A DNA stretch of 42,668 nt, taken from IMG/VR virus record IMGVR_UViG_3300046012_001027, positions 1 to 42,668 of that record. The stretch is one strand, 5' to 3'. This DNA comes from a virus. Shown here piece after piece: positions 3,052 through 40,904 of the stretch (the first letter of the stretch is position 1; the number at the start of each line of letters is the position of its first letter). Made by a program: the position numbers and the translations under genes. The notes under the pieces were generated by a model. That model was not told the origin of the DNA. It made no database searches and worked only from the letters and a program-made list of their open reading frames with translations.

Positions 3052-3267
3052 TTACACATTATTGATGAAACATTCAGCCCAAATCTGCCAATTGCTAAAA
3101 TTATTTGGCAACGGAACATTTGACAATTCATTGTCTAAAATAAGGTTTTCAGCCCATTCCTTCCAGTCACTTTCATCTCTGGCAAGTGGAAGGTTAAGTT
3201 TTGGTAAATCCACATAAAGCGTATTTGACCATTCTACAAAATCTATTCCTGTGGGGATAGTAATCAT
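3052..3267 (-). CDS. Small Trp-rich phage protein downstream of the tail hub
   Basis: This is a 71-residue protein whose ATG overlaps the hub gene's TGA (ATGA), so translation is probably coupled to the hub. It contains two imperfect repeats built on W-x-x-W-A-E: DWKEWAENLIL and NWQIWAECFIN. Short proteins of this type often sit between hub and ejection-protein genes in podoviruses, but I know no proven function. A role in tail assembly is suggested only by position and coupling. Confidence 0.7.
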   Translation of the reverse strand: MITIPTGIDFVEWSNTLYVDLPKLNLPLARDESDWKEWAENLILDNELSNVPLPNNFSNWQIWAECFINNV

Positions 3268-7519: not shown

Positions 7520-8449
7520 TTAATCAGCCTCTAGTGTTGTATAACGGTCAACTTTCCTCAAATCATTCTTTGCATTCCATGAGGAAATAGCCTTGACATA
7601 TTCTTGTTCAATTATGGGAATCCTCAAATCATTCTGGAGATCAAGCATTGCTTCCAAAAGGACAGCCTTAAGAAGGACTTCCGGCATAAATTCTGTGAGA
7701 TAATTTGTTTGATAACTGGCATCTATAACTTGCGGCGTTTCCAAATAAGAAAGAAGATAGGGATAAGCTTGGTCAGGTGTTGGTGAAATCAACCAGTTAT
7801 AATAGGCAAAATCTGCATAGAATTGGGGAGGAGCTGTCAACTTCTGATTTGGCCAAAATGAGCGCGCATATTCATAAGGTCTTAATAAAATAGGGGTATA
7901 ATCATTATATGTTGGAAAAGTTACGGTTACATTTGATCCACCCCCTATTTCGTAAGAAGTTGCTGTTCCTTCTGTTAGATAAGAAAAAGCCTGTCCTAAT
8001 GGGTCTATTGTGGTAGAATAAATAGAGGATGTTATATTCATTTGGTCATCAGTTACTCCCCCCAGTTCCCCACCTGGATTAGATGCACCAGAAATAATGA
8101 CAGTTTGCCCAACAGTAAGGTTAGAAGCGGAAGGGACAGTGACAAAAATTTCCCCATCACCAACATTTGTATTGAGTGGATTATTTCCCAGTTGGAGGGT
8201 GGTACCTCCTGACCCAAAATTCCATGTAATGGTATTTTGCCATCTGGCAGGTTTAGGGTAAACAGATACCCCAGGCGTAAAAGTTCCCCCCACATAGACT
8301 TCAAACAATTGTGTATTGGAATCGCGGGCTATGCGTTCATGGGCAAATTTTATCCAGGCATCAATGTCCCCAGCAACATTTTCATCATTCTTTTCAAGGT
8401 AATTTATGGTTTTTTCTATTAATGAATTATAGGTAAGGACGAAAGACAT
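7520..8449 (-). CDS. Head-tail adaptor protein (SU10-adaptor type) with inserted beta domain
   Basis: This 309-residue protein begins with the helical pattern of phage adaptor proteins (SLIEKTINYLEKNDE, then IDAWIKFAHERIARD). It ends with a long helical region (FMPEVLLKAVLLEAMLDLQ ... EYVKAISSW), as in the SU10-type adaptor family. Between the halves, about residues 84-178 form a copy of the beta domain also found in the hub and in a head protein (LQLGNNPLN, LTVGQTVIISGA, DQMNIT, SYEIGGG). The adaptor ring would sit between portal and hub. An AT-rich motif with a TAGGAT ribosome site lies directly upstream, suggesting a promoter close to the start. Confidence 0.75.
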   Translation of the reverse strand: MSFVLTYNSLIEKTINYLEKNDENVAGDIDAWIKFAHERIARDSNTQLFEVYVGGTFTPGVSVYPKPARWQNTITWNFGSGGTTLQLGNNPLNTNVGDGEIFVTVPSASNLTVGQTVIISGASNPGGELGGVTDDQMNITSSIYSTTIDPLGQAFSYLTEGTATSYEIGGGSNVTVTFPTYNDYTPILLRPYEYARSFWPNQKLTAPPQFYADFAYYNWLISPTPDQAYPYLLSYLETPQVIDASYQTNYLTEFMPEVLLKAVLLEAMLDLQNDLRIPIIEQEYVKAISSWNAKNDLRKVDRYTTLEAD

Positions 8450-8512: not shown

Positions 8513-8938
8513 TTAAGTTTCTAATAATTCCCTGTAAGACACATTTGTATCGCAAAAGTGCTTGGGGTCATTTGTAAAAGCAAAAATCAAATCTCCTTGC
8601 TCCATGGTAAAACCAACCCCCTTAAGCAATTCAATTGTATTGTAAACCGGAAGCAGAACATGATTAAATTTAAATGATGGGATTGCTGTTGGAACCCCAT
8701 CAATAAAACGCTCACATAAAGTATAAACGTTGATAATTATATCTTTATTGGTAGTATTGCATATAAATATACTATCAATAATACACGCATGTTCTGAACC
8801 AAGATAATTAGTCCCAAAGATCGACACAGCCGTACTATTGACATTTGGACGGGGAGTCGACAAAGGATTAACCCACGGGTATGAAGTAGGTGTCGCCATT
8901 TTTGGACGGAGCTTCGGCAAAGGGTGGGGTGTCGTCAT
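8513..8938 (-). CDS. Small virion-associated protein of unknown role
   Basis: This 141-residue protein lies in the tail cluster. After a Pro-rich N-terminus it has a beta-sandwich-like pattern (HACIIDSIFICNTTNKDIIINVYTL, split here into alternating hydrophobic strands), ending FTNDPKHFCDTNVSYRELLE. The look is that of small phage proteins that coat or decorate the virion, but no family is recognised. The first ATG lacks a clear ribosome site. A second in-frame ATG at residue 14 (MATPTSYPW) follows what appears to be a duplicated start region: MTTPHPLP...RPKM versus MATPTSYP...RPNV. The true start is therefore uncertain. Confidence 0.6.
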   Translation of the reverse strand: MTTPHPLPKLRPKMATPTSYPWVNPLSTPRPNVNSTAVSIFGTNYLGSEHACIIDSIFICNTTNKDIIINVYTLCERFIDGVPTAIPSFKFNHVLLPVYNTIELLKGVGFTMEQGDLIFAFTNDPKHFCDTNVSYRELLET

Positions 8939-9444: not shown

Positions 9445-9684
9445 TTATTCCTTATCTTGAGAAGACAAGATGGCAATGATCTCATCTATTAAAACATTGT
9501 TCGTTTGCAGGGTGAATATTTGATCTTGAAAAGCTGCCGCCTGGGCATTGTAGGAATCAATCATCAAGTTGGCTTGCGCAATGGCCTGGTTGACAGATTG
9601 TATCTGCCACTCAAGGGTACTGATGCTATTAATGTTTATTTGCTTCTGTTCGTTTTCGTAATCAATAAGTGTTTGATTTGACAT
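9445..9684 (-). CDS. Small coiled-coil protein, probable fibre accessory
   Basis: The start chosen is the ATG at 9684, because TAAAGGAG stands 8 bases before it. The longer frame to 9717 has no such site and overlaps the fibre gene. The 79-residue protein is Gln/Asn/Ile-rich and helical (IQSVNQAIAQANLMIDSYNAQ), ending NNVLIDEIIAILSSQ. It shares that ending with the 132-aa neighbour 3 bases downstream. It sits directly after the giant fibre gene, so an accessory, chaperone or trimerising role for the fibre is the best guess. Confidence 0.65.
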   Translation of the reverse strand: MSNQTLIDYENEQKQININSISTLEWQIQSVNQAIAQANLMIDSYNAQAAAFQDQIFTLQTNNVLIDEIIAILSSQDKE

Positions 9685-9709
9685 AATATATTTCTCCTTT
9701 AAATAAAAT

Positions 9710-12700
9710 TTAGACACGCACTACCGTGAGGGACATTCCCCATGGCGTAATAGTGCTTCCTCCTGTAGCTTGCCCCCATATTTCTACATAATCGTTGGTT
9801 GCAAAATTGAGAATAATCTCTAAAGAAGTAATCTGATAAACGCCTAAGCCACTGTTGGTCTTTGGCAAATAATAAGCAGTGGGGGTGCCATTTTTCACAA
9901 TTCCAAAATAAATCACATCGCCAAAAATAGAGTTATAAGTCCACGAAACAGTTGCTGAAACCTTTGCCCTGACAGGACTTTGCGTAGCGTCAGTATATGT
10001 TAAGCGATTGGTAGAAGCCGTAAACCCGTTAACATAAGATGATGTCGTAGTTCCAGTTGCCTTGACCCAGGTATTGTTAGCGGTAAACCCTGTGGCATTA
10101 TTTGTCATGGCAATGCACCCACAGAGGTTCTTTGCGTAAGAAGTCCCTGGGATTATACAATCTCCAGTTCCTTTGATTCTTCCCACTTCATTAGAGGTAG
10201 TTGAGGAGGTTCCGGCATAGAACACATGATCAGAAGCGGTAGAATCCACCTGATAACGTAAAGTAGCCAAGTTTATTCCAAATCCATAATATTGATGATC
10301 GTTTGCAACCGTTTCAAATAAGGAGATTTTGCGATTTAAAGCATAATTGCCAAATTTTAATGAAAGACCGCAAAATATAGAACCAGAAAAATTTGTATCC
10401 CAAAGGATTGTAAAATTATTTGCAGTAGCATCAAAATGTATTAAATTAGTTGGCGACCCCCCCCCTCCAAGAAACTGATCAAAGAAAAAATCTCCAGTTA
10501 CTGCCCCCCCCAATGATGTTACTTGCCTAAACCTATATCCATGACCTGCATTGTTTTTTAAATAACTTGAGGTAGTGCTTGTGTTTGCTAAAGTTGGGAC
10601 AAAACTGTTTACAATATCAAACTCAGAAGAAGTGTTATTAAACGTAAAGGTTTGAGAATTGTTGCTACCGTGCACAGAAATATTGGTGCTTAATGCAGTT
10701 GCAAGCGGTGCGCCAATCACACCGGAGCCTGTCACATCACCCGTTAACACAATCGTACCTGCAGAAATGGCGCCGTCCACATAGTGCTTGGTGGCCGCAT
10801 CCTGGGCAGATGTAGGGTCAACAACGTTAATTAGCTTGTGGGTATTCAGGTTAACATTGGCTGCGGCAACCGTGATTTGATCTAAAGACAATACCAGCGT
10901 GGTTGCGAAAGGGGTTCCTATGACGCCACTACCCGTAACGTTGCCAGTCAATACGATGGTTCCAGCAACGACAGCCGAGTCCACATAACCTTTTGTTGCT
11001 GCATCTGTGCTAACCGTTGGTGTGGCCAAGCTGGTTATCTTGTGGGAATTTAAGCTTACGTCAGTAACTGGATGAGGAATGGTGTCTAAAGTCATGTTAA
11101 GAATGGTAGCAAAAGAGCCATTGACAAGCCCCGACCCAGTCACATTGCCAGTTAAGGTGATGGTTGAATTGTCAATATAATGCTTGGTTGCGCCATCTTG
11201 CGCCGAGACGGGATCAACAACATTGATTATCCTGTGGGTATTTATATTCACGTTGCTTGTGGCCAGTGGGATTTGGTCAAGGCTAAGTGCCAGGGTGGTG
11301 GCAAAAGGCGTTCCTACGACGCCGCTCCCTGTTACATTACCAGTCAACGTGATTGCGCCAGTAGTGACGGCACTGTCAACGTACGCTTTTGTAGCTGCGT
11401 CTGTGCCTGAAGTAGGAGTAGCAAGACTTGTTATCTTGTGGGAATTTAAGCTTACATTGGCAACAGGAACCGGAATAGTATCAAGTGTCATATTCAATGT
11501 GGTGGCAAATGGCGTCCCTATGACCCCTGATCCTGTTACGTCACCTGTTAAATTAATAGTTCCTGCGGAAATAGCCGCCGCGATCTCTGCACTCAGATAG
11601 GCCACATTTACTGCATCCGTAGAGGCAGGCGTTAGGGACATCGCAAGATTATTAATCTGAAAGCTATCCATATCCACATTGGCTACGGGATGAGGGATCG
11701 TATCAAGCGTCATGTTCAGGGTCGTAGCGAATGGAACGCCTGTCGTACCAGAACCTGTTACATCGCCTGTCAGCGTTACGGTTGCATCTCCCAGCAAACC
11801 AAATAGGGTAACGATTTGACCTTGAACAACAGTCATATAACCTGTTTCAATTGCCTGCCAACCTTGAAGGCTTAATATTTCCCCATCAATTGTATCTAAA
11901 CGGGCAACAATAACGCCTAATGCACCATCCATAACGGTAGAGACATACCCCACATTGACAGCGTCAGTATTAGCAGGAGAAGGAGCCATTGAAAGGTTAT
12001 TTATCTGATAACCGTTCATGCTCACATTCCCTACAGGTGCAGGGATTGTATCAAGCGTCATATTAAGTGTGGTAGCAAACGGTGTACCAACAGTACCAGA
12101 ACCAGTTACATCGCCCGTGAGTGTTATAGAGCCATCCCCTACAACAGAGGTAAGGTATCCGACATTAACCGCATCAGTGTCACTGGGGAAAAAACCCATG
12201 GCTAAATTGTTTATCTGGTACCCATTCATATCGACATCGTCTACAGGTGCAGGGATTGTATCCAAAGTCATGTTTAACGTGGTAGAAATAGACCCACCCA
12301 ATGAGAGTAAGGCTATAGTTTCACTTCCCGTAACATCCCCTGTCAACTCAATGGATGTTGCCTCAATACTGACAATAGCGGCTGTATTTGCCGCAACAGA
12401 AAGACCTAAAGCCGCCACTGTTGCATCTAATACTAAAATATCGGCTGTATTTGCTGCAACTGCTGCATCAAGTTCTGCCACGTCAGCAGTAAGGGTAGCT
12501 AACTCCTCTGCGAGCGAAGCAACAGATTCATTTAGAATCTCAACATCGGCTGCAAGGGCAGCAACAGTAGCCTCTAGAAGAGCGACATCGGCCACTAATC
12601 CTGCAACAGTAGCCTCCAAAATAGACAACTCTGCTCCTATACTTTCAACTTCTACCGTTAATGCAGCAAGTTCAGATGTCAGTGTCTCAACTTCAGCTGT

Positions 12701-13882
12701 GAGGGTAGCAACCTCTGTTGTTAAGGTTCCAACTTCTGTATTGAGCGTCGCAATATCGGCTGTATTAGCAGCGACCTCAGCATCAAGGGCGCTTATTTCT
12801 TCTTCGATTAGCTCAATAGTAATTTCAAGGCCACTCAAAGTTTCTAATATACTATCTATCGCACTCAATATTCTTGCTATGTTTTCTAATATACTGTTTA
12901 TGCTGCTAAATATGCTCGCTATATCACTAGCAATACTTGCAATAGATTGAAGTATGTCTGATATTTGCCCCAAAATATCGTTTACATTAACTTCAAGATT
13001 GGTTAAATCATCAGAAAGTTGGGGGATACCCGTAATATCCATCCTCCAAATCTTTTTCCATTCAAGTGGAGTATAGGAAGGAAGGTTGTCGTGGTATATC
13101 CGGTTTCTCGGAGAAGGTCTGTTATCTTCGTCCCCGACCCAAATTTGATACTGTGGAAGGTAAAGAATGTTAAGAGGAATCACAGGCGACGCAACAGGGC
13201 GGTTGGAACCGTCACCCACCCATACATTATCAGTTGGCAAATCTGCCATATTTGTTAAGGGAAGAACCTCAATTTCTACAGGCCGATTTGCGCCATAATT
13301 TAAAGGATTAGATGAGTCTGTCCCATACCACAATTTTCCAACCGTCAAATCAGGAAGATTTGTAATATTAACCCTTAGAATGATTTCAGGCTCCCCTAGT
13401 GTTAGGGGATTAGGACTACCAGAATATAAATTATATGCTCCTAACAGTTTATTTACATCAGCGCTAAGCATAGTTGGCAAGTTTCCAACCTGAATTCTGG
13501 GGAATTCAGCAGCCTTATTGTCGGCATCTCCAATCCATAAATAATTTTGCGTTAAAGAAGGAGTGAGATAGTCAGTACCAGGAATGGCAATAGAAATAAC
13601 GCCATCTGTTTGCTTCAAGATACCAGTATCTAGCTTATCTAATGCTTGAGCCTTCAAAAAGTTAGGAGAAGGGTGTTGTAAAATAAAGGAGGTTTCTGCC
13701 AATCTGTTTCTTAAATCAATAATTTCAAGACGGAGGTCAATAAGGATAGGGGAGGGGATAGGTACTTCATCCACACCACCAATAATGACGTAATTCGGGG
13801 CTAACGGGAAAAGTATAGTTAATGGCGACCTGCCGGAAACAGGGGATATAAAAAAATCTGTAAATCCAGGCAAGTATTGCAT
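9710..13882 (-). CDS. Giant repetitive tail fibre/adhesin (1390 aa)
   Basis: Domains in order: residues 1-~290 carry a repeated 'LWIGD.DN..' motif (YLWIGDADNKAAEFP, VWVGDGSNRPVASP, IWVGDEDNRPSP). Residues ~295-510 form a long coiled coil rich in AxVAxLxAxVxxL heptads. Residues ~510-1060 contain seven full and one partial copy of a ~65-residue shaft repeat (LTGDVTGSG, ATTLNMTLDTIP, then INNL or ITSLA and TDAATKxYVD). After that come a beta-rich region and a C-terminal jelly-roll-like knob of ~130 residues (TANNTWVKATGTTT ... GIVKNGTPTAYYLP ... NDYVEIWGQATG) resembling C1q/TNF-type heads. The TDAATKxYV motif is typical of long side tail fibres. Its ATG overlaps the patatin stop (TAATG), so the two are co-translated. 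Confidence 0.85.
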   Translation of the reverse strand: MQYLPGFTDFFISPVSGRSPLTILFPLAPNYVIIGGVDEVPIPSPILIDLRLEIIDLRNRLAETSFILQHPSPNFLKAQALDKLDTGILKQTDGVISIAIPGTDYLTPSLTQNYLWIGDADNKAAEFPRIQVGNLPTMLSADVNKLLGAYNLYSGSPNPLTLGEPEIILRVNITNLPDLTVGKLWYGTDSSNPLNYGANRPVEIEVLPLTNMADLPTDNVWVGDGSNRPVASPVIPLNILYLPQYQIWVGDEDNRPSPRNRIYHDNLPSYTPLEWKKIWRMDITGIPQLSDDLTNLEVNVNDILGQISDILQSIASIASDIASIFSSINSILENIARILSAIDSILETLSGLEITIELIEEEISALDAEVAANTADIATLNTEVGTLTTEVATLTAEVETLTSELAALTVEVESIGAELSILEATVAGLVADVALLEATVAALAADVEILNESVASLAEELATLTADVAELDAAVAANTADILVLDATVAALGLSVAANTAAIVSIEATSIELTGDVTGSETIALLSLGGSISTTLNMTLDTIPAPVDDVDMNGYQINNLAMGFFPSDTDAVNVGYLTSVVGDGSITLTGDVTGSGTVGTPFATTLNMTLDTIPAPVGNVSMNGYQINNLSMAPSPANTDAVNVGYVSTVMDGALGVIVARLDTIDGEILSLQGWQAIETGYMTVVQGQIVTLFGLLGDATVTLTGDVTGSGTTGVPFATTLNMTLDTIPHPVANVDMDSFQINNLAMSLTPASTDAVNVAYLSAEIAAAISAGTINLTGDVTGSGVIGTPFATTLNMTLDTIPVPVANVSLNSHKITSLATPTSGTDAATKAYVDSAVTTGAITLTGNVTGSGVVGTPFATTLALSLDQIPLATSNVNINTHRIINVVDPVSAQDGATKHYIDNSTITLTGNVTGSGLVNGSFATILNMTLDTIPHPVTDVSLNSHKITSLATPTVSTDAATKGYVDSAVVAGTIVLTGNVTGSGVIGTPFATTLVLSLDQITVAAANVNLNTHKLINVVDPTSAQDAATKHYVDGAISAGTIVLTGDVTGSGVIGAPLATALSTNISVHGSNNSQTFTFNNTSSEFDIVNSFVPTLANTSTTSSYLKNNAGHGYRFRQVTSLGGAVTGDFFFDQFLGGGGSPTNLIHFDATANNFTILWDTNFSGSIFCGLSLKFGNYALNRKISLFETVANDHQYYGFGINLATLRYQVDSTASDHVFYAGTSSTTSNEVGRIKGTGDCIIPGTSYAKNLCGCIAMTNNATGFTANNTWVKATGTTTSSYVNGFTASTNRLTYTDATQSPVRAKVSATVSWTYNSIFGDVIYFGIVKNGTPTAYYLPKTNSGLGVYQITSLEIILNFATNDYVEIWGQATGGSTITPWGMSLTVVRV
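10690..12370 (-). repeat. Tandem ~65-residue shaft repeats within the giant fibre gene
   Basis: Eight divergent copies of a ~200-bp coding repeat encode LTG(D/N)VTGSG ... TLDTIP(x)PV ... NVxxNxxxIxxL ... TDA(A/V)xxxYV. Copies 5 and 7 (SLDQI, INVVDP) resemble each other more than their neighbours, and so do 4 and 6 (NSHKITSLATP). This suggests duplication of a two-repeat unit. Two long plus-strand open frames here are antisense by-products of the repeats. Confidence 0.85.
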
Positions 13883-14874
13883 TATGCTGTCAAATGTCCC
13901 AAAAAGTTCGATACATTTGTTATGTCATTGTTAAAAGTCGTTGTGGCCAGCGTTTGCATGTAGGTAATAAAATCTGAACTGCTATTATCAAGCTCGGTAT
14001 CCCTATCTTTGTCTAATTGGGCATTAGCACGATAAGTATAAATGTTCTGCAACGTGTAAAGATCTATATTCTGCAATAATGCTGTATCTGTCTCTTGCGT
14101 TCCTGTAATTAAAATTCCTAATAAATTAAAAATAAAAGACATATTAGATTCATCAGGCGGAGGGGGGGTAATAGGGGATTGTCCAAACCCAATATCACCC
14201 AACCCAGACCCGATAGATAAAATACATGTCCGGTTGGCATTCGGTTTCACAATATTGCCAAGCATATATCCAAGCATGGCGGGATTGTTTTTAATGCATG
14301 CACCATCTAGATACGAATTGATGCCATCCCAGTTTGCAGGCGGAAAATAAAGAGGTGCCGCAGATGTTGACAATCCTACATTTCTCAGCAGTTCAGTTGA
14401 ACCGGAGGAATCAGGAAATACAATATTAGAAAATAGTACTGGAGTATTAGTTGTGTAATTATATGAAGTTATTAATGTATTTGTATTTAAATCTCTCATA
14501 TTATAATCGCCATATAATTCATATAACTGAGATTCAAGGTTATCATTTGGATAAAAACTTCCACCAAGTACCATTGTGGCAAGTTTATTCAGTGCTGTAG
14601 CCCTTAGTCCCGGAATAAGGGTTGAGGTTGAAAATATCCAGGGACCACCATTTGTCAGAAAATTTGTAAAATCAGATGGGGAATAACCTGCTGCATAACC
14701 AAGTGCTTGCAATCCGCCCGCGCTCGTTCCACAAATAACATCAAAATATTTCCATATTTCATCAGGGTTAATGCCCCACAGGTTTACAAACTCTTGCATC
14801 CATTGGACACTAAAAACTCCACGCATACCTCCCCCATCTATGGCAAGGATACGGACGGTATTCGGATCAGCCAT
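13882..14874 (-). CDS. Patatin-like phospholipase
   Basis: This is a 330-residue protein with the complete patatin signature. The oxyanion-hole glycine loop is DGGGMRG at residues 13-19. The nucleophile elbow is GTSAG with Ser51, and the catalytic Asp190 is in DGA. Together these form the Ser-Asp dyad used to release fatty acids from phospholipids. The strand-helix spacing fits a normal bacterial patatin domain with a short extra C-terminal helical tail. No signal peptide is visible. The gene lies inside the tail cluster and overlaps the giant fibre gene (TAATG), so it is made with virion proteins. It may be a virion-borne membrane-attacking enzyme, or a lysis or host-manipulation factor. The family is clear, the role inferred. 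Confidence 0.9.
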   Translation of the reverse strand: MADPNTVRILAIDGGGMRGVFSVQWMQEFVNLWGINPDEIWKYFDVICGTSAGGLQALGYAAGYSPSDFTNFLTNGGPWIFSTSTLIPGLRATALNKLATMVLGGSFYPNDNLESQLYELYGDYNMRDLNTNTLITSYNYTTNTPVLFSNIVFPDSSGSTELLRNVGLSTSAAPLYFPPANWDGINSYLDGACIKNNPAMLGYMLGNIVKPNANRTCILSIGSGLGDIGFGQSPITPPPPDESNMSFIFNLLGILITGTQETDTALLQNIDLYTLQNIYTYRANAQLDKDRDTELDNSSSDFITYMQTLATTTFNNDITNVSNFLGHLTA

Positions 14875-14883
14875 TACACAACC

Positions 14884-15069
14884 TCAATCATCAATCAAAA
14901 TTGCTAATATTTTCTGGTTCCGGCGGGATTCCAAATATTTCTTTTCATATACAAACCATTCATGGGAATCCCATACGCCTAAAGGTTTAAGGGAATCGCC
15001 TTTAAGGAAATCAACTTCCAAATCGTCATCATATTGATCTAATGCTTCTTTAAATTGCCTTACATTCAT
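14884..15069 (-). CDS. Small conserved phage protein
   Basis: The start chosen is the ATG at 15069. It overlaps the previous gene's TGA as ATGA and follows a GGGGAGATGGAG ribosome site; the longer frame to 15156 would run far into that gene. The 61-residue product (MNVRQFKEALDQYDDDLEV, later WFVYEKKYLESRR) has the pattern of small phage proteins with an N-terminal helix plus DDxEV strand. Function is unknown. It is coupled to the 109-aa gene upstream and precedes the patatin gene by 9 bases. Confidence 0.65.
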   Translation of the reverse strand: MNVRQFKEALDQYDDDLEVDFLKGDSLKPLGVWDSHEWFVYEKKYLESRRNQKILAILIDD

Positions 15070-15395
15070 TCTCCATCTCCCCATGAAAAAGGAGGATGGG
15101 AATTTTGATTCCCTTCTACTGTTTGATCTGCCAAGCCATCGGGTATAGTTTGCCAAGGCCGAGGATGGTCAAGAGGCACAGGGTCAGGCTTAATCAAAGG
15201 ATTTAAACTTTGGGGGTTGGGGACATCCAGGAAGTATTTGTTGACATAAAGGCCAGTCCAAACAAGTCCTGATCCCCTATAATCCATTTGTTTTACCAAA
15301 TCGTTATAATTGCAAAGTTGCCCAGAGCGGTCACATCTGGCAACAGCATCTGGAGAATTTTGATTTATCCTTACGAATCTGCCTTTTGGAAACAT
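15066..15395 (-). CDS. Conserved phage neck-region protein of unknown function
   Basis: This 109-residue protein carries a pattern met in many tailed phages: VARCDRSGQLCNYNDLVKQM, then GSGLVWTGLYVNKYFLDVPN, then a Pro-rich tail (PLIKPDPVPLDHPRP). The two cysteines in CDRSGQLC resemble half of a zinc site, with no second pair visible. It lies directly behind the gp4-like neck gene and overlaps the next gene by ATGA. In related phages it is always among head-tail genes, so a completion or decoration role is likely but unproven. Confidence 0.75.
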   Translation of the reverse strand: MFPKGRFVRINQNSPDAVARCDRSGQLCNYNDLVKQMDYRGSGLVWTGLYVNKYFLDVPNPQSLNPLIKPDPVPLDHPRPWQTIPDGLADQTVEGNQNSHPPFSWGDGE

Positions 15396-15406: not shown

Positions 15407-16453
15407 TCAATAACCCAACATATTAGGCTGGATGCGAAGATTTACTTTTTCACTATCTTCAATTGCCGCTTCTTGATATGCTGCTGCTGACAAACCTCCC
15501 AATATATCCGACCTCTCAAGGGCGAACTTTAAAGACATTTCATAGGCCAGGGCTAACCGACATGCATTCATAAATCTTTGGGGGATAAATATATTCTGGT
15601 TTAAGGAAGTTACATCCATAAGTTGTATTTCCTGGTTATATACCAGTGTTTGATATGAGTTATCCGGTGTCGGCCATAATGTTATGCGAGGATTTATTTG
15701 CCGATCTATATAATAACTGGAAGGCGTTGCCTGGACTTGCTTGTTGGGGTATGACGTCCATTCTTCCCGTGAAATTGTGGTCAATATACGGCTGGAAAAT
15801 GGAGTTGAGAAATATATTTCCTGTATATCAAGAGTTGATGCGCCAGTTTCCCTGATACGTATAGCGGAGGCATTTACAGGAGCATTGATGACAGCCCAAA
15901 TTATTTGGCCAAGGGGGTAAAATAATGACCCAATTGTTAATGTATTAAACCATACATTCCTATCAAAAGAATATTCAACGACAAGGTTATAATCCCTGTT
16001 GGCATTTGACTGGATGCCTACATAATAAATAGAAGGTGTAGTATCTGGAGAATAAGTATAAGAAATAAATCCACCGGGTGAAGTTTGAGTACAAGCGCTG
16101 GAAGCGTTTCCATCAAATGCATTTGCGGCTGTACCCCCTTGGTTTGAAAAGGCTGCCCCTCCCAATTGTCTTATATTATTGCTGGCGGTTACTTCAGTTG
16201 CCATTACAGCATAAGGCGCAAGGAAATAGCTAGGCTGCCCAACGTTAAGTTGTAACATAGCCTTTTGTTCAGTAAAGAGGTTTAATCCTTTATTTACCCA
16301 ACTTGAGAGGATAAAATTTAGGCTGCTGATGGCAGACGCTTGTTGCAATCCTCCAATCGCAGGCCCCAGAATGCCGCATAGCTCAAAAGCCTCATCCACG
16401 AAATTTCTGACGAGGGTTTTTTTATTAAAATCGAAAGTTTGACTATAGGCCAC
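15407..16453 (-). CDS. P22 gp4-like neck/tail accessory protein with inserted discoidin-like domain
   Basis: This is a 348-residue protein. The N-terminal helices (VRNFVDEAFELCGILG ... SSLNFILSSWVNKGLNLF) and C-terminal part (YPNKQVQATPSSYYIDRQ, PRITLWPTPDN, RFMNACRLALAYEMSLKFAL) match the tail accessory family to which P22 gp4 belongs. The family joins the portal to the hub. Between them, about residues 95-217 read like an F5/8 type C (discoidin) jelly roll: AFDGNASSACTQTSPGGFI, YVGIQSNANRDYNLVVEYS, SAIRIRETGAS. That insertion about doubles the size and would protrude from the neck, perhaps binding sugars. P22 gp4 also cuts cell wall, but I see no active-site evidence here. Confidence 0.8.
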   Translation of the reverse strand: MAYSQTFDFNKKTLVRNFVDEAFELCGILGPAIGGLQQASAISSLNFILSSWVNKGLNLFTEQKAMLQLNVGQPSYFLAPYAVMATEVTASNNIRQLGGAAFSNQGGTAANAFDGNASSACTQTSPGGFISYTYSPDTTPSIYYVGIQSNANRDYNLVVEYSFDRNVWFNTLTIGSLFYPLGQIIWAVINAPVNASAIRIRETGASTLDIQEIYFSTPFSSRILTTISREEWTSYPNKQVQATPSSYYIDRQINPRITLWPTPDNSYQTLVYNQEIQLMDVTSLNQNIFIPQRFMNACRLALAYEMSLKFALERSDILGGLSAAAYQEAAIEDSEKVNLRIQPNMLGY

Positions 16454-18810: not shown

Positions 18811-19716
18811 TTATACTCCTGCTGATCCATAAGCGGCACGCCAGTTAGAACAACCAAATGAATACCTTTCAACAAATGTAACGTTCAAGTTACGCGTTGT
18901 TGCATCAGTAAACATGTCAATTGTTAATGGATCCCTTTCATAATATTTAAAACCGTTAGTTTCATTGGTTAGCAATTGCCACTGGTTAGGGTTTGTCAAG
19001 AATTGGTTAACCCTGTATCCTAATGGAACGCTTGATAAGTTATAAACGGCAGAGATATCATTATTTGCTGTATTGGTGCGATATTTAGATTCAAGCAATA
19101 CGTTAGCTGTAAATTGAAGCTCCGGAGGCACAATCAATTTCTCACCCTGCAACGCGATACGTAATCCAGCAGCATTCATGAATTTCTGAACACCAATTAA
19201 TGCATCCTGTAAGGATGTTTCATTTAATTGAGTTGGCAACGCAAATGTATTTGGTACAACATTCCCACTTACTGGATGCTGCGTAGAAAACAACGGCTGG
19301 CCATCGGACACTGGGTAGGCTGGATTGAAGGCATTGTTAATAACAGCAGCACCTTCTATATTTTTTGCCTGGCGAAGGGAATCCTTACCAGATTCAGCAG
19401 CACGTGGCCAATACTCCTTGTACAGGTTGTCACGAATTGTATTCGCAGAGATTTGAAATCCGATGCCAAAATTGCGGTGAAAATAGGCGGTTTGATACTG
19501 TTGACCCATATCCCCATACACCACGGAACCACCATCTGGCTTGAATTGTGCCATTGGCAATAGCCTCATTTCCTGCTCATATTCAGCAGCCTTATCAGAA
19601 ATATGGCTGGTAAATATTTCCTTCCATTGATCGGGATAGGTCAGGTAGTCCCCAAATACCGATTTTAGCCCGGGTCGTAACAAGTTTTGAATACTAGATA
19701 ATGTGATAATAGCCAT
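18811..19716 (-). CDS. Major capsid protein (HK97-fold type, Mu gpT-like family)
   Basis: This is a 301-residue protein. Features typical of this capsid family are an N-terminal LRPGLKSVFGDYL, an extended-loop region with FKPDGGSVVYGDMGQQYQ, and RNFGIGFQISANTIRDNLY. Then come AAVINNAFNPAYPVSDGQPLF and STQHPVSGN, and the late segment LTNETNGFKYYERDPLTID. Length fits a mature capsid subunit without a covalent scaffold. It lies between the 198-aa decoration protein and the beta-rich head proteins, downstream of scaffold and chaperonin genes in the same direction. The upstream gene ends 4 bases before its start. Confidence 0.85.
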   Translation of the reverse strand: MAIITLSSIQNLLRPGLKSVFGDYLTYPDQWKEIFTSHISDKAAEYEQEMRLLPMAQFKPDGGSVVYGDMGQQYQTAYFHRNFGIGFQISANTIRDNLYKEYWPRAAESGKDSLRQAKNIEGAAVINNAFNPAYPVSDGQPLFSTQHPVSGNVVPNTFALPTQLNETSLQDALIGVQKFMNAAGLRIALQGEKLIVPPELQFTANVLLESKYRTNTANNDISAVYNLSSVPLGYRVNQFLTNPNQWQLLTNETNGFKYYERDPLTIDMFTDATTRNLNVTFVERYSFGCSNWRAAYGSAGV

Positions 19717-20540: not shown

Positions 20541-20774
20541 TTAAAGGGTGAAGATACGGTATAAAACTATGCCTGCTATCCAAATAAAAACCAACCCGCA
20601 CAGGATTATTAAAGCATACCTTTCAAGAAAGTCCAAAAAACCCACCGATTTATTCTCTTCAATCATAATAACGAGGGTAAAGAGCGCGGATGAATAAGAT
20701 GAGTAAAATGAGGAAACAAATAAAAATCCCTCCGCACAATAATAACATGTCAAAGACCATCCCGATCCATTCAT
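20541..20774 (-). CDS. Small membrane protein overlapping the chaperonin gene
   Basis: This 77-residue frame's ATG overlaps the chaperonin stop (TAATG). An AGGAGG lies only two bases before the ATG, so the spacing is poor. Near the C-terminus is one clear membrane segment (YALIILCGLVFIWIAGIVLY). The middle (VIMIEEN) repeats the chaperonin's C-terminal VIMIEEN, encoded by a 21-bp exact DNA repeat, so part of this gene seems to be a duplicated scrap of the chaperonin end. It may be a minor holin-like or membrane protein, or partly a recombination product. A shorter start at the second Met (residue 37) would still keep the membrane segment. Confidence 0.45.
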   Translation of the reverse strand: MNGSGWSLTCYYCAEGFLFVSSFYSSYSSALFTLVIMIEENKSVGFLDFLERYALIILCGLVFIWIAGIVLYRIFTL

Positions 20775-20851
20775 TACCTCCTGATTTTTAGTGGGTTTGA
20801 GGGATCTTGTATGGCATTTAAAGTGATTTCATTCTCTTCAATCATAATAAC
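20652..20851. repeat. 21-bp direct repeat at the chaperonin 3' end and in the next gene
   Basis: The 21-base sequence at 20652-20672 recurs exactly at 20831-20851 (begins ATTCTCTTCAATC, ends ATAATAAC). Both copies are read in the same frame by their genes, giving VIMIEEN in each. The spacing of 179 bp suggests a local duplication or slippage. Confidence 0.8.
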
Positions 20852-22507
20852 ATCTGTCGTAAGAAGGAGGGAAGCTATAGAAACAGCATCTTTTAAAGCT
20901 GTGATGACGACATTAGCAGGGTCAATAATTCCTGCTTTTACCATGTCAACAATCTTAAAATTCAAGGCATCATAACCAATATTAAATATTCCTTGCAGGC
21001 CATCTTTTTCGATAGAGTCTTCTATTTCTTCAGGAATTTTACCTGCATTTTCAATTATTTGTTGCCAAGGAGCTTTTAAAGCCTGTTCTATAAGGTAAAC
21101 CCCTTGTGCAAATGAAGCAGCATAATGTATGGGGCCACCAGGTTTGTCCATTTCATCAAATTCCTCAGATTCCTCAGATTCCTCAGATTCCTCAGATTCA
21201 AATCCCGTCAGAGGAATTTCACACTTCCCCAGATAATCATAGGCTTTTATCAAGGAAGTTGCGCCCCCAGGCAAAATACCGCCTTTAAGTGCCGAACGGG
21301 TAGCATGCACAGCATCTTCAACGCGGTCTTTGCGCTCCTTCATTTCAAATTCTGTATGTGCGCCAATTTTAATTACAGCAACACCATCTGTTAACTTGGC
21401 AAGCCGTTCTTCAAAATTTTTCTTATCTTCTTGTGAAGGAGTATTTTCAATTTCATTCCTCAGATATTTGCATCTTGCTTCAATATTGTCTTTCTCCCCA
21501 TATCCCCCTATGAATGTAGTCTTGTCTTGGGTAATTATAATTTTCTTTGCACGCCCAAGCATGTCTTTTTTAAGATTTTCCAGTTTAGTTCCTGTATCCT
21601 CTGACACAACGGTTGAGGCACACATAATTGATAAATCACTCATAATGTCAATACGCTTGCTGCCAAAGTAAGGACTTTTGACAGCCGCTACTTTAAAATT
21701 GTTTTTCTTGTTATTAAGGACAAGCATCCCTAAAGCTTCATGGTCGACATCCTCTGCAATGATGAGAAGGGATTCATTTGCCCTTGCTATTGATTCCAAA
21801 AGGGGAAGCATTGGCTGGAGGGTTGAAATTTTCCTATCATAAATAAGGATGTATGGATCATCCAGTTCACATATCATTTTAGACGTATTTGTTACGAAAT
21901 AAGGAGTTATGTACCCATTATCAATTTGAAGTCCTTCTACAATTATTGATTCAGTTTCAAATGATGGTGACTCTTCCAATGTAATCACACCATCTTTACC
22001 AACCTTCTTAAAAGTATCAGCAATAATCTTGCCAATTTCCCTGTCACCATTGGCAGATATAGTAGCAATGTTTATAACATCTTCAGGGGATGAAATTTCA
22101 ATGGTATTTTTACCTAAAAATTCCATGACTTTTTCCAAGGCTTTAGACATCCCTTCCTTTAATGCAATAGGGTTGCTTCCATCTTTAATAAAATTAATGC
22201 CATTATTAATAATACTTTGTGCAATTACCGTGGCCGTGGTTGTTCCATCCCCTACTGTATGACAGGTATTTATTGCCACTTCCCTTATAACATTAACCCC
22301 TGCATTTTGGATTTCATCGTAAAGATGGACTTCCTTTGCAACTGATACACCGTCTTTTGTAAATCTCAGAGGTCTCCCTTTATTTCCAATAAGGACATTT
22401 CTCCCTTGTGGCCCGAGTGTTGATTTAACTGCATTTGCCAATATATTGATTCCATTAAGGATTTCAGAATGGCCTTCTTCTTTGAATTTTATTATTTTTG
22501 GGAACAT
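20774..22507 (-). CDS. groEL: Phage-encoded GroEL-like chaperonin (Cpn60)
   Basis: This 577-residue group I chaperonin aligns with E. coli GroEL almost without gaps in the N-terminal part, so numbering matches: LGPQGRN 31-37, KDGVSVAKE 51-59 with Asp52, and GDGTTTAT 86-93 with Asp87. The later VEDAVHATR holds the equivalent of Asp398. The apical site NGYITPYFV keeps the Tyr/Phe residues that bind substrate and GroES. Three oddities: a ~30-residue acidic insertion near residues 435-465 made of tandem SEE repeats in the equatorial domain, the third Gly of the GGG loop replaced (LPGGAT), and a C-tail without the GGM repeats. It would fold virion proteins in the host cytoplasm. It lies between scaffold-side genes and the capsid operon. 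Confidence 0.95.
   Translation of the reverse strand: MFPKIIKFKEEGHSEILNGINILANAVKSTLGPQGRNVLIGNKGRPLRFTKDGVSVAKEVHLYDEIQNAGVNVIREVAINTCHTVGDGTTTATVIAQSIINNGINFIKDGSNPIALKEGMSKALEKVMEFLGKNTIEISSPEDVINIATISANGDREIGKIIADTFKKVGKDGVITLEESPSFETESIIVEGLQIDNGYITPYFVTNTSKMICELDDPYILIYDRKISTLQPMLPLLESIARANESLLIIAEDVDHEALGMLVLNNKKNNFKVAAVKSPYFGSKRIDIMSDLSIMCASTVVSEDTGTKLENLKKDMLGRAKKIIITQDKTTFIGGYGEKDNIEARCKYLRNEIENTPSQEDKKNFEERLAKLTDGVAVIKIGAHTEFEMKERKDRVEDAVHATRSALKGGILPGGATSLIKAYDYLGKCEIPLTGFESEESEESEESEEFDEMDKPGGPIHYAASFAQGVYLIEQALKAPWQQIIENAGKIPEEIEDSIEKDGLQGIFNIGYDALNFKIVDMVKAGIIDPANVVITALKDAVSIASLLLTTDVIMIEENEITLNAIQDPSNPLKIRR
21160..21199 (-). repeat. 9-bp tandem repeat coding the SEE stretch in the chaperonin
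   Basis: Four to five copies of a 9-base unit (ATTCCTCAG on the plus strand) encode the (E-S-E/S-E-E) stretch of the acidic insertion. Such short in-frame tandem repeats vary easily by slippage, so the insertion length may differ between relatives. Confidence 0.85.
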
Positions 22508-25999: not shown

Positions 26000-28345
26000 T
26001 TAAATAATTCCTTGCTCTTTCAAGTCCAATTCCCTTTCATCCAATTCAATTTCCCTTTCATCCAATTCAATTTTTTTCATTTCAGCTTCATAATCAAGTT
26101 GGGCTTTAAATGCTTCTGTTTGTGCTTTAAGCTGGTCTGATTTAGATTTTTCATCAATGCCTTTATCTTTTACCTTAACTTCCTCAAGCATAACCAAGGC
26201 CGGATCAAGTGGTGGAGGAGGGGCTTCTTCCTGTTGTTGCTGTTGTTGTTGCATCAAAGCTTGTGCGACCATCATCGCTATCTGATTTTGCTCTTCCATA
26301 GGCAATTCATACGGATTTTCTGGCATTTGGAATCCGCCAATCTGTTGCATATCAAGCAAGAATTTAAATGCCAGATGCTCTGCATTATGCGCTAGAACAG
26401 ATGCTATTATTTCTGGGGAAGAATTAGGATCATTCAAAAGCATCCCATGGATGACTAGATGAGATTGATGATCTTGCTCTATAGATGCTTTTGCAGGTTT
26501 TGCCTGAATTAAATTTTGATTCTCAGTAATAGGGTCAAGAGGAATAACTTCCTCTTTTTTAGGCAATAATTCATCAATTCTTGACTTGGGCATTTTCATA
26601 GCTTCATAGTACATCTTGTATGCAATATACCTGTCATGAAGGTCGGGAGCTTGATTTGCGTTATCTACAACAACCTGGCTTCTCATAAGCTTTTGAATTT
26701 CAGATGTTACATGGGGATCAGCAACAGGGACAATACTAATTTTATCCGAAAAGTCAGAAGACTTTATGAATGAAGATGAACCACTTGCATCAAATTCAAA
26801 TTCCTCATCCGGTAAATGTTTTGCAAAAAGTTTATAAAATAATCCAAATTCTTTTGTCATTGAATCACGAATGCCGCGAATTACTGTACTTTGGACTTTG
26901 TAAAGTAAACCAAGCATGGCATATGTTGTGCCAACAGGGACATTTGGATTAAAATCTGACACAAGACTATTAGCCGCGCCCATTATACGGGAACCTGCTG
27001 CCTCTAATTCTTTTCGCAATTCATTAAGATAAGGGGAAGGTTCCTTGTATGGCATTAACATAATGCCATCTCTAATAGGTTGGCCGCCTGTGTCTACTTC
27101 AACAAATTCAGTGGGGCCGATTCTTAAGTTATTATGACTTGCCCTCATATCTTTAGAACGCAATCCCCCGGGGAAATTGGAAAGCGTTTGTCCATCTATT
27201 GTTTGCCTCAATAACTTTGTGCTTGCATCTGACATGCCTGCAATAAGATGGGCCGCCCCATACCCATAAAAATAAAGACCCTCCATATAGGAATAATTTG
27301 TAAATACATCAACTCGCCTAAAATCTTTGTCACCTTCCTCCCAATTTCTATAAAGACCCAATATTTTCCTTGATTTTCTATCTATTGAAACAATATATGG
27401 CTTATAATTGGTATCCTCAAGATTCTCATTCTCTTGCGTAGACGTGTTATTATTACCATTTACATCCTCAATATCTAAATAAACATGGGATTCATAGATA
27501 GTATAAACATCAGGGTCATCATAATTAGGAACGGTCGTCCCATCAACAGTATCTATAGTTTTTTTAAGGTTTGAGTCATCTTCTTCATCATCTGCTGTAA
27601 TATCTATATTCCTGTAAATCCCCAACTTTTGATAAGAAGCTACTTCAATCTTGTCCAGCTTCTTCCTTTCTGTCATACGCCTGCATGTTTCAAGATTTGT
27701 GGTACCGTATTTGACAATAAAATCCTGTGGCAACAGGAATTGAGATGTTGGGCGCTTCAGGATTGGGTCAAAATAAGTTTTACGGACTGCATTGCCAGCA
27801 ACCCCCAACCACATGAGCATTTTCTTGAAATCGGGATAAAACTCAGGCGCTTCTTTAGTAAAGTAGAGGTTTGACCATGTTTCTGCACGCTCTGCGGTAT
27901 TTTGCAATTCTTTTGAAACTGTACCTACAATTAATTGTTTTACAGGGCCTTCTTCGGGTAATAGCTCAGGAACAGCACTTACATAAAATTCAATTACTGT
28001 CTGCATAACGATAGGGGAATATGATCCACAGGCATGCTCAAAAGGTTCCGTCTTTTTATCAATTTTTAATCCCAGTTGCAGGAGACCTTCAGTTAGGCCA
28101 TCTTCCCAATCCTTACGTGCTTCGATGTCATTTTCAATGTCATTAATTAAGGAAGACGCTATCTTAGTAAGGACGCTATCTTTAAGGGATTCAGCCAAAT
28201 TTTCGTCATGCCCCGCATAATCTGGCTGTATAAATAAATCGCTATCTTCATCATCTGGTGAAATTTCTTCAATGTTGATTTGATCTAGAATTGATGGGAG
28301 TTGAAACAAGTAGTCTTCTTGAAATTCGTCGCGTTCTTCAGTCAT
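26000..28345 (-). CDS. Portal protein (P22-type)
   Basis: This 781-residue protein is similar in size to the P22 portal (725). Features include an acidic N-terminus, the clip/stem region with GNAVRKTYFDPILKRP, FLLPQDFIVKYGTTN, and the long helix preceded by NGLYFYGYGAAHLI-like text (MEGLYFYGYGAAHLIAGMSD). GGLRSKDMR, MLMPYKEPSPYLNELRKEL and GTTYAMLGLLY follow. The C-terminus has a poly-Gln run, a Pro run and a ~70-residue helical segment (ELDEREIELDERELDLKE), matching the barrel of P22-like portals. The portal forms the 12-mer gate through which terminase loads DNA. It heads the leftward virion module and is divergent from the methyltransferase-like gene. Confidence 0.9.
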   Translation of the reverse strand: MTEERDEFQEDYLFQLPSILDQINIEEISPDDEDSDLFIQPDYAGHDENLAESLKDSVLTKIASSLINDIENDIEARKDWEDGLTEGLLQLGLKIDKKTEPFEHACGSYSPIVMQTVIEFYVSAVPELLPEEGPVKQLIVGTVSKELQNTAERAETWSNLYFTKEAPEFYPDFKKMLMWLGVAGNAVRKTYFDPILKRPTSQFLLPQDFIVKYGTTNLETCRRMTERKKLDKIEVASYQKLGIYRNIDITADDEEDDSNLKKTIDTVDGTTVPNYDDPDVYTIYESHVYLDIEDVNGNNNTSTQENENLEDTNYKPYIVSIDRKSRKILGLYRNWEEGDKDFRRVDVFTNYSYMEGLYFYGYGAAHLIAGMSDASTKLLRQTIDGQTLSNFPGGLRSKDMRASHNNLRIGPTEFVEVDTGGQPIRDGIMLMPYKEPSPYLNELRKELEAAGSRIMGAANSLVSDFNPNVPVGTTYAMLGLLYKVQSTVIRGIRDSMTKEFGLFYKLFAKHLPDEEFEFDASGSSSFIKSSDFSDKISIVPVADPHVTSEIQKLMRSQVVVDNANQAPDLHDRYIAYKMYYEAMKMPKSRIDELLPKKEEVIPLDPITENQNLIQAKPAKASIEQDHQSHLVIHGMLLNDPNSSPEIIASVLAHNAEHLAFKFLLDMQQIGGFQMPENPYELPMEEQNQIAMMVAQALMQQQQQQQEEAPPPPLDPALVMLEEVKVKDKGIDEKSKSDQLKAQTEAFKAQLDYEAEMKKIELDEREIELDERELDLKEQGII

Positions 28346-29682: not shown

Positions 29683-31326
29683 ATGTCATTTGCATCTATA
29701 GCTAATATCATTAAGGAAGTCAGGTACACCCTTAATCCACCTCCCATCGAAATAAACGAAAAGTTTATCCGTGAAGGGGAAATAATGGAAGAGGATTTTC
29801 ATAAATTTCTCCAAGGAGCGTGGCATGTAATAGAAGGTAACCGTCCTTTTATAGACGGATGGCATCTGCAAGCTATATGCGAACATTTAGAAGCTCTTTA
29901 TAATTTGGAAATTAATAAATTATTGTGCAATATACCCCCTGGAACATGTAAATCAACTATATTTGCAGTAGCTTACCCGGCATGGTTATGGACACGGGAA
30001 CCAGGTCTTCAGTCTATGTTTTCATCGTACGGTTCAAAACTTTCAACTCGGGACAGTGTTGCATGCAGGCGCCTTATAGAATCCCAATGGTATTGGGAAC
30101 GATGGGGGCATAAATGCCAATTGACGGATGATGTGAACACAAAACTAAGGTTTGACAATAAACAAGGCGGTTACAGGCTCGCAACAAGTATCAAGGGAGC
30201 CGCCACTGGTGAGCACGTAGATTTGATTGGATTTGATGACCCTAATAACGCAAGCGAAACAGAATCAGAAGTGAAAAGGGAGGGAACAAATGAGATTTGT
30301 GACCGTGTGATGTCCTCACGTTTCAATAATCCTGAAACAGGACGGCTTTGCATTGTCCAACAAAGACTACATTCACAGGATTATTCAGGCCATGTGTTGG
30401 CGAAAAATATGGATGGGTTAGTTCATCTTTGCTTACCCATGGAATTTGAGAGATCGCGTAGGTGTGTAACAATTCCTATTAAGAGCACACAGGACAAGGT
30501 ATGGTCAGACCCGAGGAAGGAAGAAGGGGAATTGCTGTGGCCTCAATTCTACAATAGAGAGAACATAGAAACTCTAAAAAAAGGAATGGGGAGTGAGTAT
30601 GTCATTGCAGGCCAACTTCAACAAAGGCCATCCCCGGCATCAGGCGGAATTATTAAAAAGGATTGGTTCCAATGGTGGAAAGAACCCTCACCACCAAAAT
30701 GCTTTTTTACCTTACAATCATGGGATACTGCATTAAGCACAAAACCCGATGCTTGTTATAGCTGTTGTACTACGTGGGGAGTTTTCAAAGATTCGCATAA
30801 TGTATCGCAAGTTATGTTGCTAGATATATGGCACGGGAGAGTAGAATACCCCGATTTAAGACGTATGGCCATCCGTCTTGCACATAATTATCATGATACA
30901 CATATCGATCACCCTACCCCTGAGAATTACGTATTAAAGCCCGATATGATCTTAATAGAAGCTAAAGCAAATGGTTTATCCTTAATTCAGGATTTACACA
31001 GAGCAGGACTCGTTATTAACAGGTTTGATCCTGTAAAACATGGAGGGGGGGATAAAATAGTACGCGCACGACTTATAAGTAATATATTAGAAGCAGGAAA
31101 AGTATGGATGCCTGCCAAACCTCCCCATTATACTTCTCTACGAGCTTATGCAGATGTATTTGTTGAAGCATGCGCTTCTTTTCCGAATGACGCAGAGTCC
31201 AGGGATTATGTCGATAGCATGAGTCAAGCTCTCATAAGATTAAGGATGTCAGGACTGATTGGTCATCCTGACGATGGGGAAATGAGCGCGCAGTATAACA
31301 GATGGGAAGGCAAAAAATTCTATTAA
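29683..31326 (+). CDS. terL: Terminase large subunit
   Basis: This is a 547-residue packaging motor. The ATPase half has the P-loop IPPGTCKST (84-92) and Walker B DLIGFDDP (180-187), with LATSIKGAATGEHVD before it. The nuclease half has QSWDTAL with Asp348, ILIEAKANG with Glu426, and DYVDSMSQAL with Asp511, the three acidic residues of the RNase H-like fold. The C-terminal pattern is that of the large-terminase group often called TIGR01630. No strong ribosome site is seen, only an AT-rich leader. The gene is on the opposite strand to the portal and separated from any small-terminase candidate by several kilobases, which is unusual. Confidence 0.95.
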   Translation: MSFASIANIIKEVRYTLNPPPIEINEKFIREGEIMEEDFHKFLQGAWHVIEGNRPFIDGWHLQAICEHLEALYNLEINKLLCNIPPGTCKSTIFAVAYPAWLWTREPGLQSMFSSYGSKLSTRDSVACRRLIESQWYWERWGHKCQLTDDVNTKLRFDNKQGGYRLATSIKGAATGEHVDLIGFDDPNNASETESEVKREGTNEICDRVMSSRFNNPETGRLCIVQQRLHSQDYSGHVLAKNMDGLVHLCLPMEFERSRRCVTIPIKSTQDKVWSDPRKEEGELLWPQFYNRENIETLKKGMGSEYVIAGQLQQRPSPASGGIIKKDWFQWWKEPSPPKCFFTLQSWDTALSTKPDACYSCCTTWGVFKDSHNVSQVMLLDIWHGRVEYPDLRRMAIRLAHNYHDTHIDHPTPENYVLKPDMILIEAKANGLSLIQDLHRAGLVINRFDPVKHGGGDKIVRARLISNILEAGKVWMPAKPPHYTSLRAYADVFVEACASFPNDAESRDYVDSMSQALIRLRMSGLIGHPDDGEMSAQYNRWEGKKFY

Positions 31327-40815: not shown

Positions 40816-40904
40816 TAATACCAATAAATACTAACATTATTAAAATAATATAAAATTGAAAATAAAGATTGTACAGAAAAAATAAAAAAATAGAGGGGAA
40901 GCAA

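What the first reader, a model, noticed from the sequence alone, without database searches (positions are those of the whole stretch)
13882..14874. Patatin-like phospholipase inside the tail-fibre operon
The complete Ser51-Asp190 dyad and glycine loop are present, and the gene overlaps the giant fibre gene by TAATG. A lipid hydrolase made with the tail suggests a virion-borne enzyme for crossing membranes, or a factor for a host that lives inside vacuoles. Patatins are not a normal part of podovirus tails.
Basis: partly seen in the sequence, partly recalled or inferred. Interest (0 to 1): 0.75.

Follow-up and report, generated by a model that had tools for sequence, protein, structure and literature searches.

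The report
Phospholipase–tail-fibre cassette in Rickettsiales phages
A virus of (probably) bacteria that live inside other cells makes a membrane-lipid-cutting enzyme from a gene that overlaps its tail-fibre gene, and the same two-gene pair recurs in scores of otherwise unrelated viruses, which suggests the enzyme helps these viruses get through, or out of, membranes.

Summary
Window 13882-14874 (minus strand) encodes a full-length patatin-family hydrolase: Pfam Patatin 2e-28, Ser51/Asp190 dyad, oxyanion loop, AlphaFold pLDDT 91. Its stop overlaps the fibre start (TAATG).

The pair is no accident. A search with the fibre N-terminal motif alone kept 80 viral contigs. Of the 79 with sequence upstream, 78 carry this patatin upstream, mostly with a 4-base ATGA overlap. 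The dyad is kept in all 86 patatins examined at Ser51 and all 87 at Asp190; dN/dS is 0.06-0.13.

Phages with the window's backbone carry the gene at the same locus. Yet its closest homologues (about 60-80% identity) sit with the same fibre N-terminus in phages whose terminase, portal and capsid are unrelated. Patatin plus fibre therefore moves as a cassette.

Hosts, where known, are mostly Rickettsiales: a Megaira phage, Rickettsiaceae MAGs, a window-type prophage. The window's own host is inferred.

The nearest solved structures are CBASS CapV phospholipases, but the phage clade is separate from CapV and from Wolbachia phage WO patatin.

Best mechanism: a lipid acyl hydrolase made, and probably assembled, with the fibre and used to cross membranes at entry (about 0.45). 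Late lysis/egress is the main rival (about 0.3). Virion presence and enzyme activity are untested.

The parts
13882..14874 (-). patatin-family lipid acyl hydrolase, 330 aa; Ser51-Asp190 dyad, GGGMRG oxyanion loop; CapV-like full-length fold
9710..13882 (-). tail fibre, 1390 aa; conserved N-terminal motif (SPV(T/S)GR ... SPILIDLRLEIIDLR), coiled-coil middle, variable C-terminal part; start codon overlaps patatin stop (TAATG)
13658..13882 (-). fibre N-terminal 75 aa, the part that is always found with the patatin
9445..9717 (-). small fibre-accessory ORF that travels with the cassette in some relatives
8513..8938 (-). 141-aa fibre-accessory ORF, also found behind the fibre in relatives with an unrelated backbone
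14884..15069 (-). 61-aa ORF between 15066-15395 and patatin; not hydrophobic, so not holin-like
15066..15395 (-). 109-aa ORF, conserved just upstream of patatin in backbone-related phages
15407..16453 (-). SU10-type adaptor (head-tail connector)
18811..19716 (-). major capsid protein (backbone marker)
26000..28345 (-). portal protein (backbone marker)
29683..31326 (+). terminase large subunit (backbone marker)

Best explanation
A two-gene host-interaction cassette: a catalytically competent patatin-family lipid acyl hydrolase translated together with the tail fibre, and exchanged with it between phage backbones that infect intracellular (Rickettsiales-type) bacteria. Most likely the enzyme is assembled with, or held by, the conserved fibre N-terminus and is carried by the particle. 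After the fibre binds, it cleaves acyl chains of membrane lipids (a eukaryotic membrane around the bacterium, or the bacterial outer membrane) so that the short-tailed particle can reach and cross the bacterial envelope. SHOWN by sequence or computation: the fold, the intact dyad under purifying selection, the operon coupling, the near-perfect and very old linkage to the fibre N-terminus, transfer as a unit between unrelated backbones, and presence in Rickettsiales phages and prophages. INFERRED: enzymatic activity, presence in the virion, contact with the fibre, target membrane, and the host of this particular phage.
For: Of 79 contigs with a fibre N-terminus and sequence upstream, 78 have the patatin upstream, 76 of them directly adjacent. 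Of 88 distinct patatin sequences with an adjacent fibre, 67 use the 4-nt ATGA overlap and 4 the TAATG overlap. The dyad is invariant and dN/dS is 0.06-0.13; patatin and fibre-N-terminus distances correlate, r=0.66 with 0 of 999 permutations as high. Fibre-linked patatins form one clade (98/98), and the whole phage group is split from CapV, WO and other Rickettsiales patatins at 100/100. The cassette swaps backbones: window terminase, portal and capsid have no match in G267-G269, whose patatins are 62-74% identical to the window's, while the window's own backbone relatives G271 and L024 have patatins only 38-40% identical. Hosts: Megaira phage, Rickettsiaceae MAGs, window-type prophage in G199. 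Two cassette phages (G267, G269) and the Megaira phage carry a separate GH24 lysozyme gene away from patatin, and no holin-like ORF adjoins the patatin in the window. Rickettsia Pat1 is a patatin PLA2 that promotes escape from host membranes (PMC9237051), so the chemistry fits the niche.
Against: No virion proteomics exists. Operon neighbours of fibres can be non-virion (fibre chaperones, lysis genes). No signal peptide or membrane-anchoring segment was seen, and the model of the fibre N-terminus is too poor (pLDDT 62) to suggest a docking mode. The closest relatives by fold (CapV) act inside the cell that makes them. In a side branch (L061, L186-L191, G199) the patatin lies in the tail gene cluster but not directly before the fibre. 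The Mantel correlation also reflects shared ancestry of linked genes.
Confidence: 0.45

Rival explanations
1. Lysis/egress enzyme. Made late with the tail proteins, the soluble patatin attacks the bacterial inner membrane from the cytosol, or the surrounding eukaryotic membranes after lysis, to free progeny. This is the role proposed for phage WO patatin.
For: It is a late-type structural operon. WO patatin sits at the end of the tail module and is proposed as a lytic cassette, since WO generally lacks endolysin and holin (PMC9203015, PMC3173496). CapV, the nearest solved fold (TM 0.78), acts inside the bacterium that makes it. No endolysin was recognised in the window itself.
Against: The gene follows the fibre, not lysis genes, through backbone exchanges. 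G267, G269 and the Megaira phage have their own lysozyme. No holin-like neighbour. The cassette patatins are a separate clade from WO patatin (100/100). The window may be incomplete, so a missing endolysin means little.
Confidence: 0.3
2. Fibre-assembly or anchoring factor: the patatin fold serves as the chaperone or the mount of the fibre N-terminus, with catalysis secondary or used to process the fibre.
For: Patatin and fibre N-terminus are the only two parts kept across unrelated backbones, although the head-tail machinery differs; translational overlap.
Against: Strict conservation of the Ser-Asp dyad and oxyanion glycines is not needed for a pure scaffold. The fibre N-terminus model is unreliable.
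Confidence: 0.12
3. A captured CBASS effector (CapV-like) used in phage-phage competition or as a decoy or sponge for host cyclic-nucleotide signalling.
For: The best full-length profile and fold matches are CBASS phospholipases: NCBIfam NF041079 1.4e-44, PADLOC effector 1.3e-49, PDB CapV TM 0.78.
Against: NCBIfam score 152.6 is below the equivalog cut-off of 200. No cyclase or CBASS gene recognised in the scanned window ORFs. Separate clade. Linkage to the fibre makes no sense for a decoy. PADLOC and NCBIfam also match WO patatin better, so the resemblance is to the whole subfamily.
Confidence: 0.06

Closest known systems
Megaira polyxenophila phage MAnkyphage_25.80 patatin + tail fiber (OP381185.1)
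   Same: Full-length patatin relative (28.5% identity over 100%) directly followed by a tail fibre with the same N-terminal motif and an ATGA overlap; phage of an intracellular Rickettsiales endosymbiont
   Different: Different backbone: among window proteins only the patatin matched by tblastn, the fibre by its N-terminal motif; patatin follows the terminase gene; carries its own lysozyme
Wolbachia phage WO patatin (Wovirus 'lytic cassette')
   Same: Patatin-like protein encoded in the tail region of a phage of an intracellular Rickettsiales bacterium
   Different: Separate clade (100/100), about 30% identity over 62% of the protein; sits after gene D with holin-like and ankyrin neighbours, not before this fibre; WO has contractile-tail genes
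CBASS CapV, cGAMP-activated phospholipase (PDB 8zr9, 9kh6)
   Same: Best fold match over the whole length (TM 0.78/0.75, 24% identity), same dyad
   Different: Below NCBIfam equivalog cut-off; no cyclase partner; phage-tail genomic setting; separate clade
Rickettsia Pat1/Pat2 patatin PLA2
   Same: Same superfamily; in the same bacterial order a patatin PLA2 opens host membranes (PMC9237051, PMC3688537)
   Different: A bacterial factor, not a phage one; patatins of Rickettsiales genomes fall outside the phage clade (the Pat1/Pat2 loci were not named among those rows)
Podovirus backbones HTVC023P/HTVC027P, CRP-901/902, Pag-Yong1, Caulobacter RW
   Same: Portal and capsid relatives of the window
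   Different: None of them appears among the 8 phage records with a patatin match

Membership tests
Patatin-like phospholipase (Pfam PF01734) | score above curated cut-off | tested here: met
   100.2 bits vs 27.7
Patatin-like phospholipase (Pfam PF01734) | G-x-S-x-G nucleophile, D-G/A partner, glycine-rich oxyanion loop | tested here: met
   Ser51, Asp190, GGGMRG; invariant in relatives
Patatin-like phospholipase (Pfam PF01734) | patatin fold | tested here: met
   AlphaFold pLDDT 90.6; Foldseek to CapV and potato patatin, TM 0.71-0.78
Patatin-like phospholipase (Pfam PF01734) | acyl-hydrolase activity | not testable with these tools
   needs an enzyme assay
CBASS CapV effector | NCBIfam NF041079 equivalog score of at least 200 | tested here: not met
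   152.6 bits
CBASS CapV effector | CD-NTase gene alongside | tested here: not met
   Neighbours are adaptor and fibre; no cyclase recognised in the window ORFs scanned
CBASS CapV effector | cyclic dinucleotide binding/activation | not tested
   binding residues were not compared
Phage WO patatin lytic cassette | same patatin clade as WO | tested here: not met
   WO groups with other Rickettsiales patatins, phage cassette clade apart at 100/100
Phage WO patatin lytic cassette | small holin-like transmembrane neighbour | tested here: not met
   flanking ORFs 14884-15069 and 15066-15395 are hydrophilic, max KD19 -0.02 and 0.43
Phage WO patatin lytic cassette | ankyrin-repeat neighbour | tested here: inconclusive
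   None in fibre or adaptor by Pfam; the two small flanking ORFs were not scanned
Patatin-fibre cassette of Rickettsiales phages (defined here) | patatin of the phage clade directly before a fibre with the SPVTGR...SPILIDxRLD N-terminus | tested here: met
Patatin-fibre cassette of Rickettsiales phages (defined here) | host in Rickettsiales | tested here: inconclusive
   true of members with a named host except two Bacteroidota MAG contigs, one nested in the Megaira-phage clade; the window's own host is unknown
Virion-borne enzyme | present in purified particles | not testable with these tools
   needs proteomics

The most novel reading that the evidence does not exclude
Phages of intracellular bacteria carry a fibre-mounted phospholipase in the particle that opens membranes (the eukaryotic membrane around the endosymbiont and/or the bacterial outer membrane), a bacteriophage counterpart of the virion-borne PLA2 of parvoviruses, and this fibre-enzyme pair is traded between phage families as a unit.
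Probability: 0.35. Interest if true: 0.88.

Novelty: new variant of a known kind. Interest (0 to 1): 0.64.

Why it matters
How phages reach bacteria that are enclosed in eukaryotic cells is an open question. A phospholipase that is genetically welded to the receptor-binding fibre, kept active by selection and exchanged with it between unrelated phages of such bacteria is a concrete, testable candidate for the membrane-crossing step (or for release). It also shows that the patatin known from Wolbachia phage WO is one case of a repeated association between patatins and tail genes in Rickettsiales phages, and it gives a sequence signature (patatin + fibre N-terminus) for recognising phages of uncultured intracellular bacteria in metagenomes.

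Tried and rejected
Genome-contig scan with the close patatin alignment A1 found nothing; the wider A3 gave 4 loci. Natural patatin-fibre fusions: none among the six-frame ORFs. Chance or annotation artefact: rejected by conservation and selection. CapV defence effector: resembles it but fails the curated cut-off and has no partner genes. WO-type lytic cassette membership: rejected by clade and neighbours. Bacteroidota hosts (L194, L195): L194 nests among Megaira-type phages, and 258 other genomes of its order had no match at E<=1e-45, so a mis-binned endosymbiont phage is likelier; L195 is a long branch and undecided. Host from the window's tRNA or GroEL: not pursued, since phage GroELs matched many unrelated phages at about 41-44%. 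Literature search found no paper on a patatin-fibre pair in podoviruses; only the open-access library was searched.

Full report
WHAT IS THERE. The window is an IMG/VR virus record of 42,668 bases. The finding's ORF is real and exactly placed, on the minus strand: 13882-14874, 330 aa. It is a patatin-family protein by Pfam (E=2.2e-28) and by comparison with solved structures, best CBASS phospholipases at 2e-20. It has GGGMRG at 14-19, GTSAG with Ser51, and DGA with Asp190. Its stop codon overlaps the start of a 1390-aa fibre gene (TAATG). It lies in one run of minus-strand virion genes: portal 26000-28345, capsid 18811-19716, SU10-type adaptor 15407-16453, two small ORFs, patatin, fibre, fibre accessories, second adaptor 7520-8449, and an ejection-protein match at 1-1488. 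Relatives of its portal and capsid are podovirus-like phages such as HTVC023P/HTVC027P and CRP-901/902; short-tailed morphology is inferred from this.

IS IT MORE THAN CHANCE. Patatin scans of viral contigs gave full-length relatives from 80% down to 28% identity. Ser51 is conserved in 86 of 86 sequences with a residue there and Asp190 in 87 of 87; oxyanion glycines are conserved too. dN/dS between close pairs is 0.06-0.13, with synonymous sites near saturation in most pairs, so the values are approximate. The AlphaFold model (53 sequences) has mean pLDDT 90.6 and pTM 0.91.

THE LINKAGE TO THE FIBRE. In nearly every relative the next gene starts with a conserved fibre N-terminus (SPVTGR ... 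GxxxG...SPILIDxRLDII). I then searched from the other side, with the fibre N-terminus only. Of 80 contigs kept, 76 have the patatin directly upstream and 2 have it 203 or 560 bp upstream. One (L087) lacks it despite 1.8 kb of sequence, and one is cut at the contig end. The alignment used for that search came from patatin-linked fibres and the tool kept the best 80 of 118, so a small bias towards linked fibres is possible. Among 88 distinct patatin sequences with an adjacent fibre, 67 overlap it by ATGA and 4 by TAATG. Exceptions form a small side branch (L061, L186-L191, G199 prophage): there the patatin is still in the tail gene cluster but not before this fibre.

A CASSETTE THAT CHANGES BACKBONE. 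Phages that share the window's terminase, portal, capsid, adaptor and the 15066-15395 gene (for example G271 and G273) carry the patatin at the same place, but only 38-40% identical to the window's. Phages whose patatin is 60-80% identical to the window's, with 50-67% identity in the fibre N-terminus, have a different backbone. G267-G269 have their own terminase (phrog_2 type), portal (phrog_156) and capsid (phrog_334), with no match to the window's at E<=10, while resembling each other at 57-84%. The patatin tree puts the window inside that group with 100/100 support. So patatin and fibre moved together between unrelated phages. The window also shares a Sak4 gene (61-66%) and an SSB-like gene (42-51%) with G267 and G269, which suggests a common host pool.

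HOSTS. Among 50,697 named phage records only 8 match: the Megaira phage MAnkyphage_25.80 (whole length, same pair, ATGA overlap), six Wolbachia phage records (partial) and one uncultured phage. In bacterial genomes the cassette is in two Rickettsiaceae MAGs and two Bacteroidota MAGs, all with the fibre motif behind it. In the order of the Rickettsiaceae MAG, 3 of 262 other genomes had a strong match (E<=1e-45), against 0 of 397 in a sample of its phylum and 0 of 258 in the order of the Flavobacteriaceae MAG. One of the three (G199) holds a window-type prophage with terminase, portal, capsid and adaptor on a 109-kb contig. The window's own host is therefore probably Rickettsiales or a similar intracellular bacterium; this is inference, because no close relative has a known host.

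WHAT IT IS NOT. The nearest structures are CBASS CapV phospholipases, aligned over the whole length (TM 0.78), and CBASS effector profiles match. But the score is below the curated NCBIfam cut-off, there is no partner cyclase, and the tree separates the groups. The patatin of Wolbachia phage WO, proposed as part of a lytic cassette (PMC9203015) or for entry or exit (PMC3173496), is also in a separate clade. The holin-like neighbour of that cassette is missing here.

HOW IT PROBABLY WORKS. Shown: a conserved, apparently active-site-intact lipid acyl hydrolase, translated with the fibre, inherited and exchanged with the fibre N-terminus, in phages of intracellular bacteria. Inferred: it is mounted on or packaged with the fibre and cleaves membrane lipids at entry. 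This is preferred over lysis because the gene's partner is the fibre through every backbone change, and because three cassette phages have a separate lysozyme. The preference is moderate. A soluble cytosolic patatin made late could equally serve egress, and CapV-type enzymes act on membranes from within. The precedent that a patatin PLA2 opens host membranes in this bacterial order is Rickettsia Pat1 (PMC9237051).

NOVELTY. Patatins in phages of Rickettsiales are known (WO; annotated without comment in the MAnkyphage record). I found no description of the patatin-fibre cassette, its strict linkage or its movement between backbones; the literature search covered only an open-access library. I file it as a new variant of a known kind.

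Noticed in passing
20774-22507 (-) and 24520-24945 (-): The phage encodes its own GroEL (phrog_5725, 1e-146) and a weak GroES-like protein (phrog_3188, 7e-4) inside the head gene cluster.
   Followed up: partly
L219:587-1237 (-), L221:15773-16435 (+), L224:8253-8972 (-): Cassette phages G267-G269 carry ORFs with a signal-peptide-like start and a C-terminal F typical of outer-membrane beta-barrels; one was confirmed as OmpA-like/OMP_b-brl by Pfam. Phage-made outer-membrane proteins might exclude superinfection or mask the receptor.
   Followed up: partly
40869-41693 (+) and 41709-42224 (+): Sak4-like and SSB-like genes are 60-66% and 42-51% identical to those of phages with an unrelated structural backbone (G267, G269), a second sign of exchange in a shared host.
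   Followed up: no
L237:5956-7233 (-): The window-type prophage in the Rickettsiales-order genome G199 has an ORF that looks like an IS256-type transposase, placed between pieces of the homologue of window 3264-5357.
   Followed up: no
L021 / L073 (IMGVR_UViG_3300048571_000205): One cassette has a 183-aa ORF with a signal-peptide-like N-terminus inserted between patatin and fibre.
   Followed up: no
25476-25546 (+): tRNA-Cys (anticodon GCA) in the head gene region.
   Followed up: no
L227:5416-6822 (-): A sodium:solute symporter-like gene in cassette phage contig G271.
   Followed up: no
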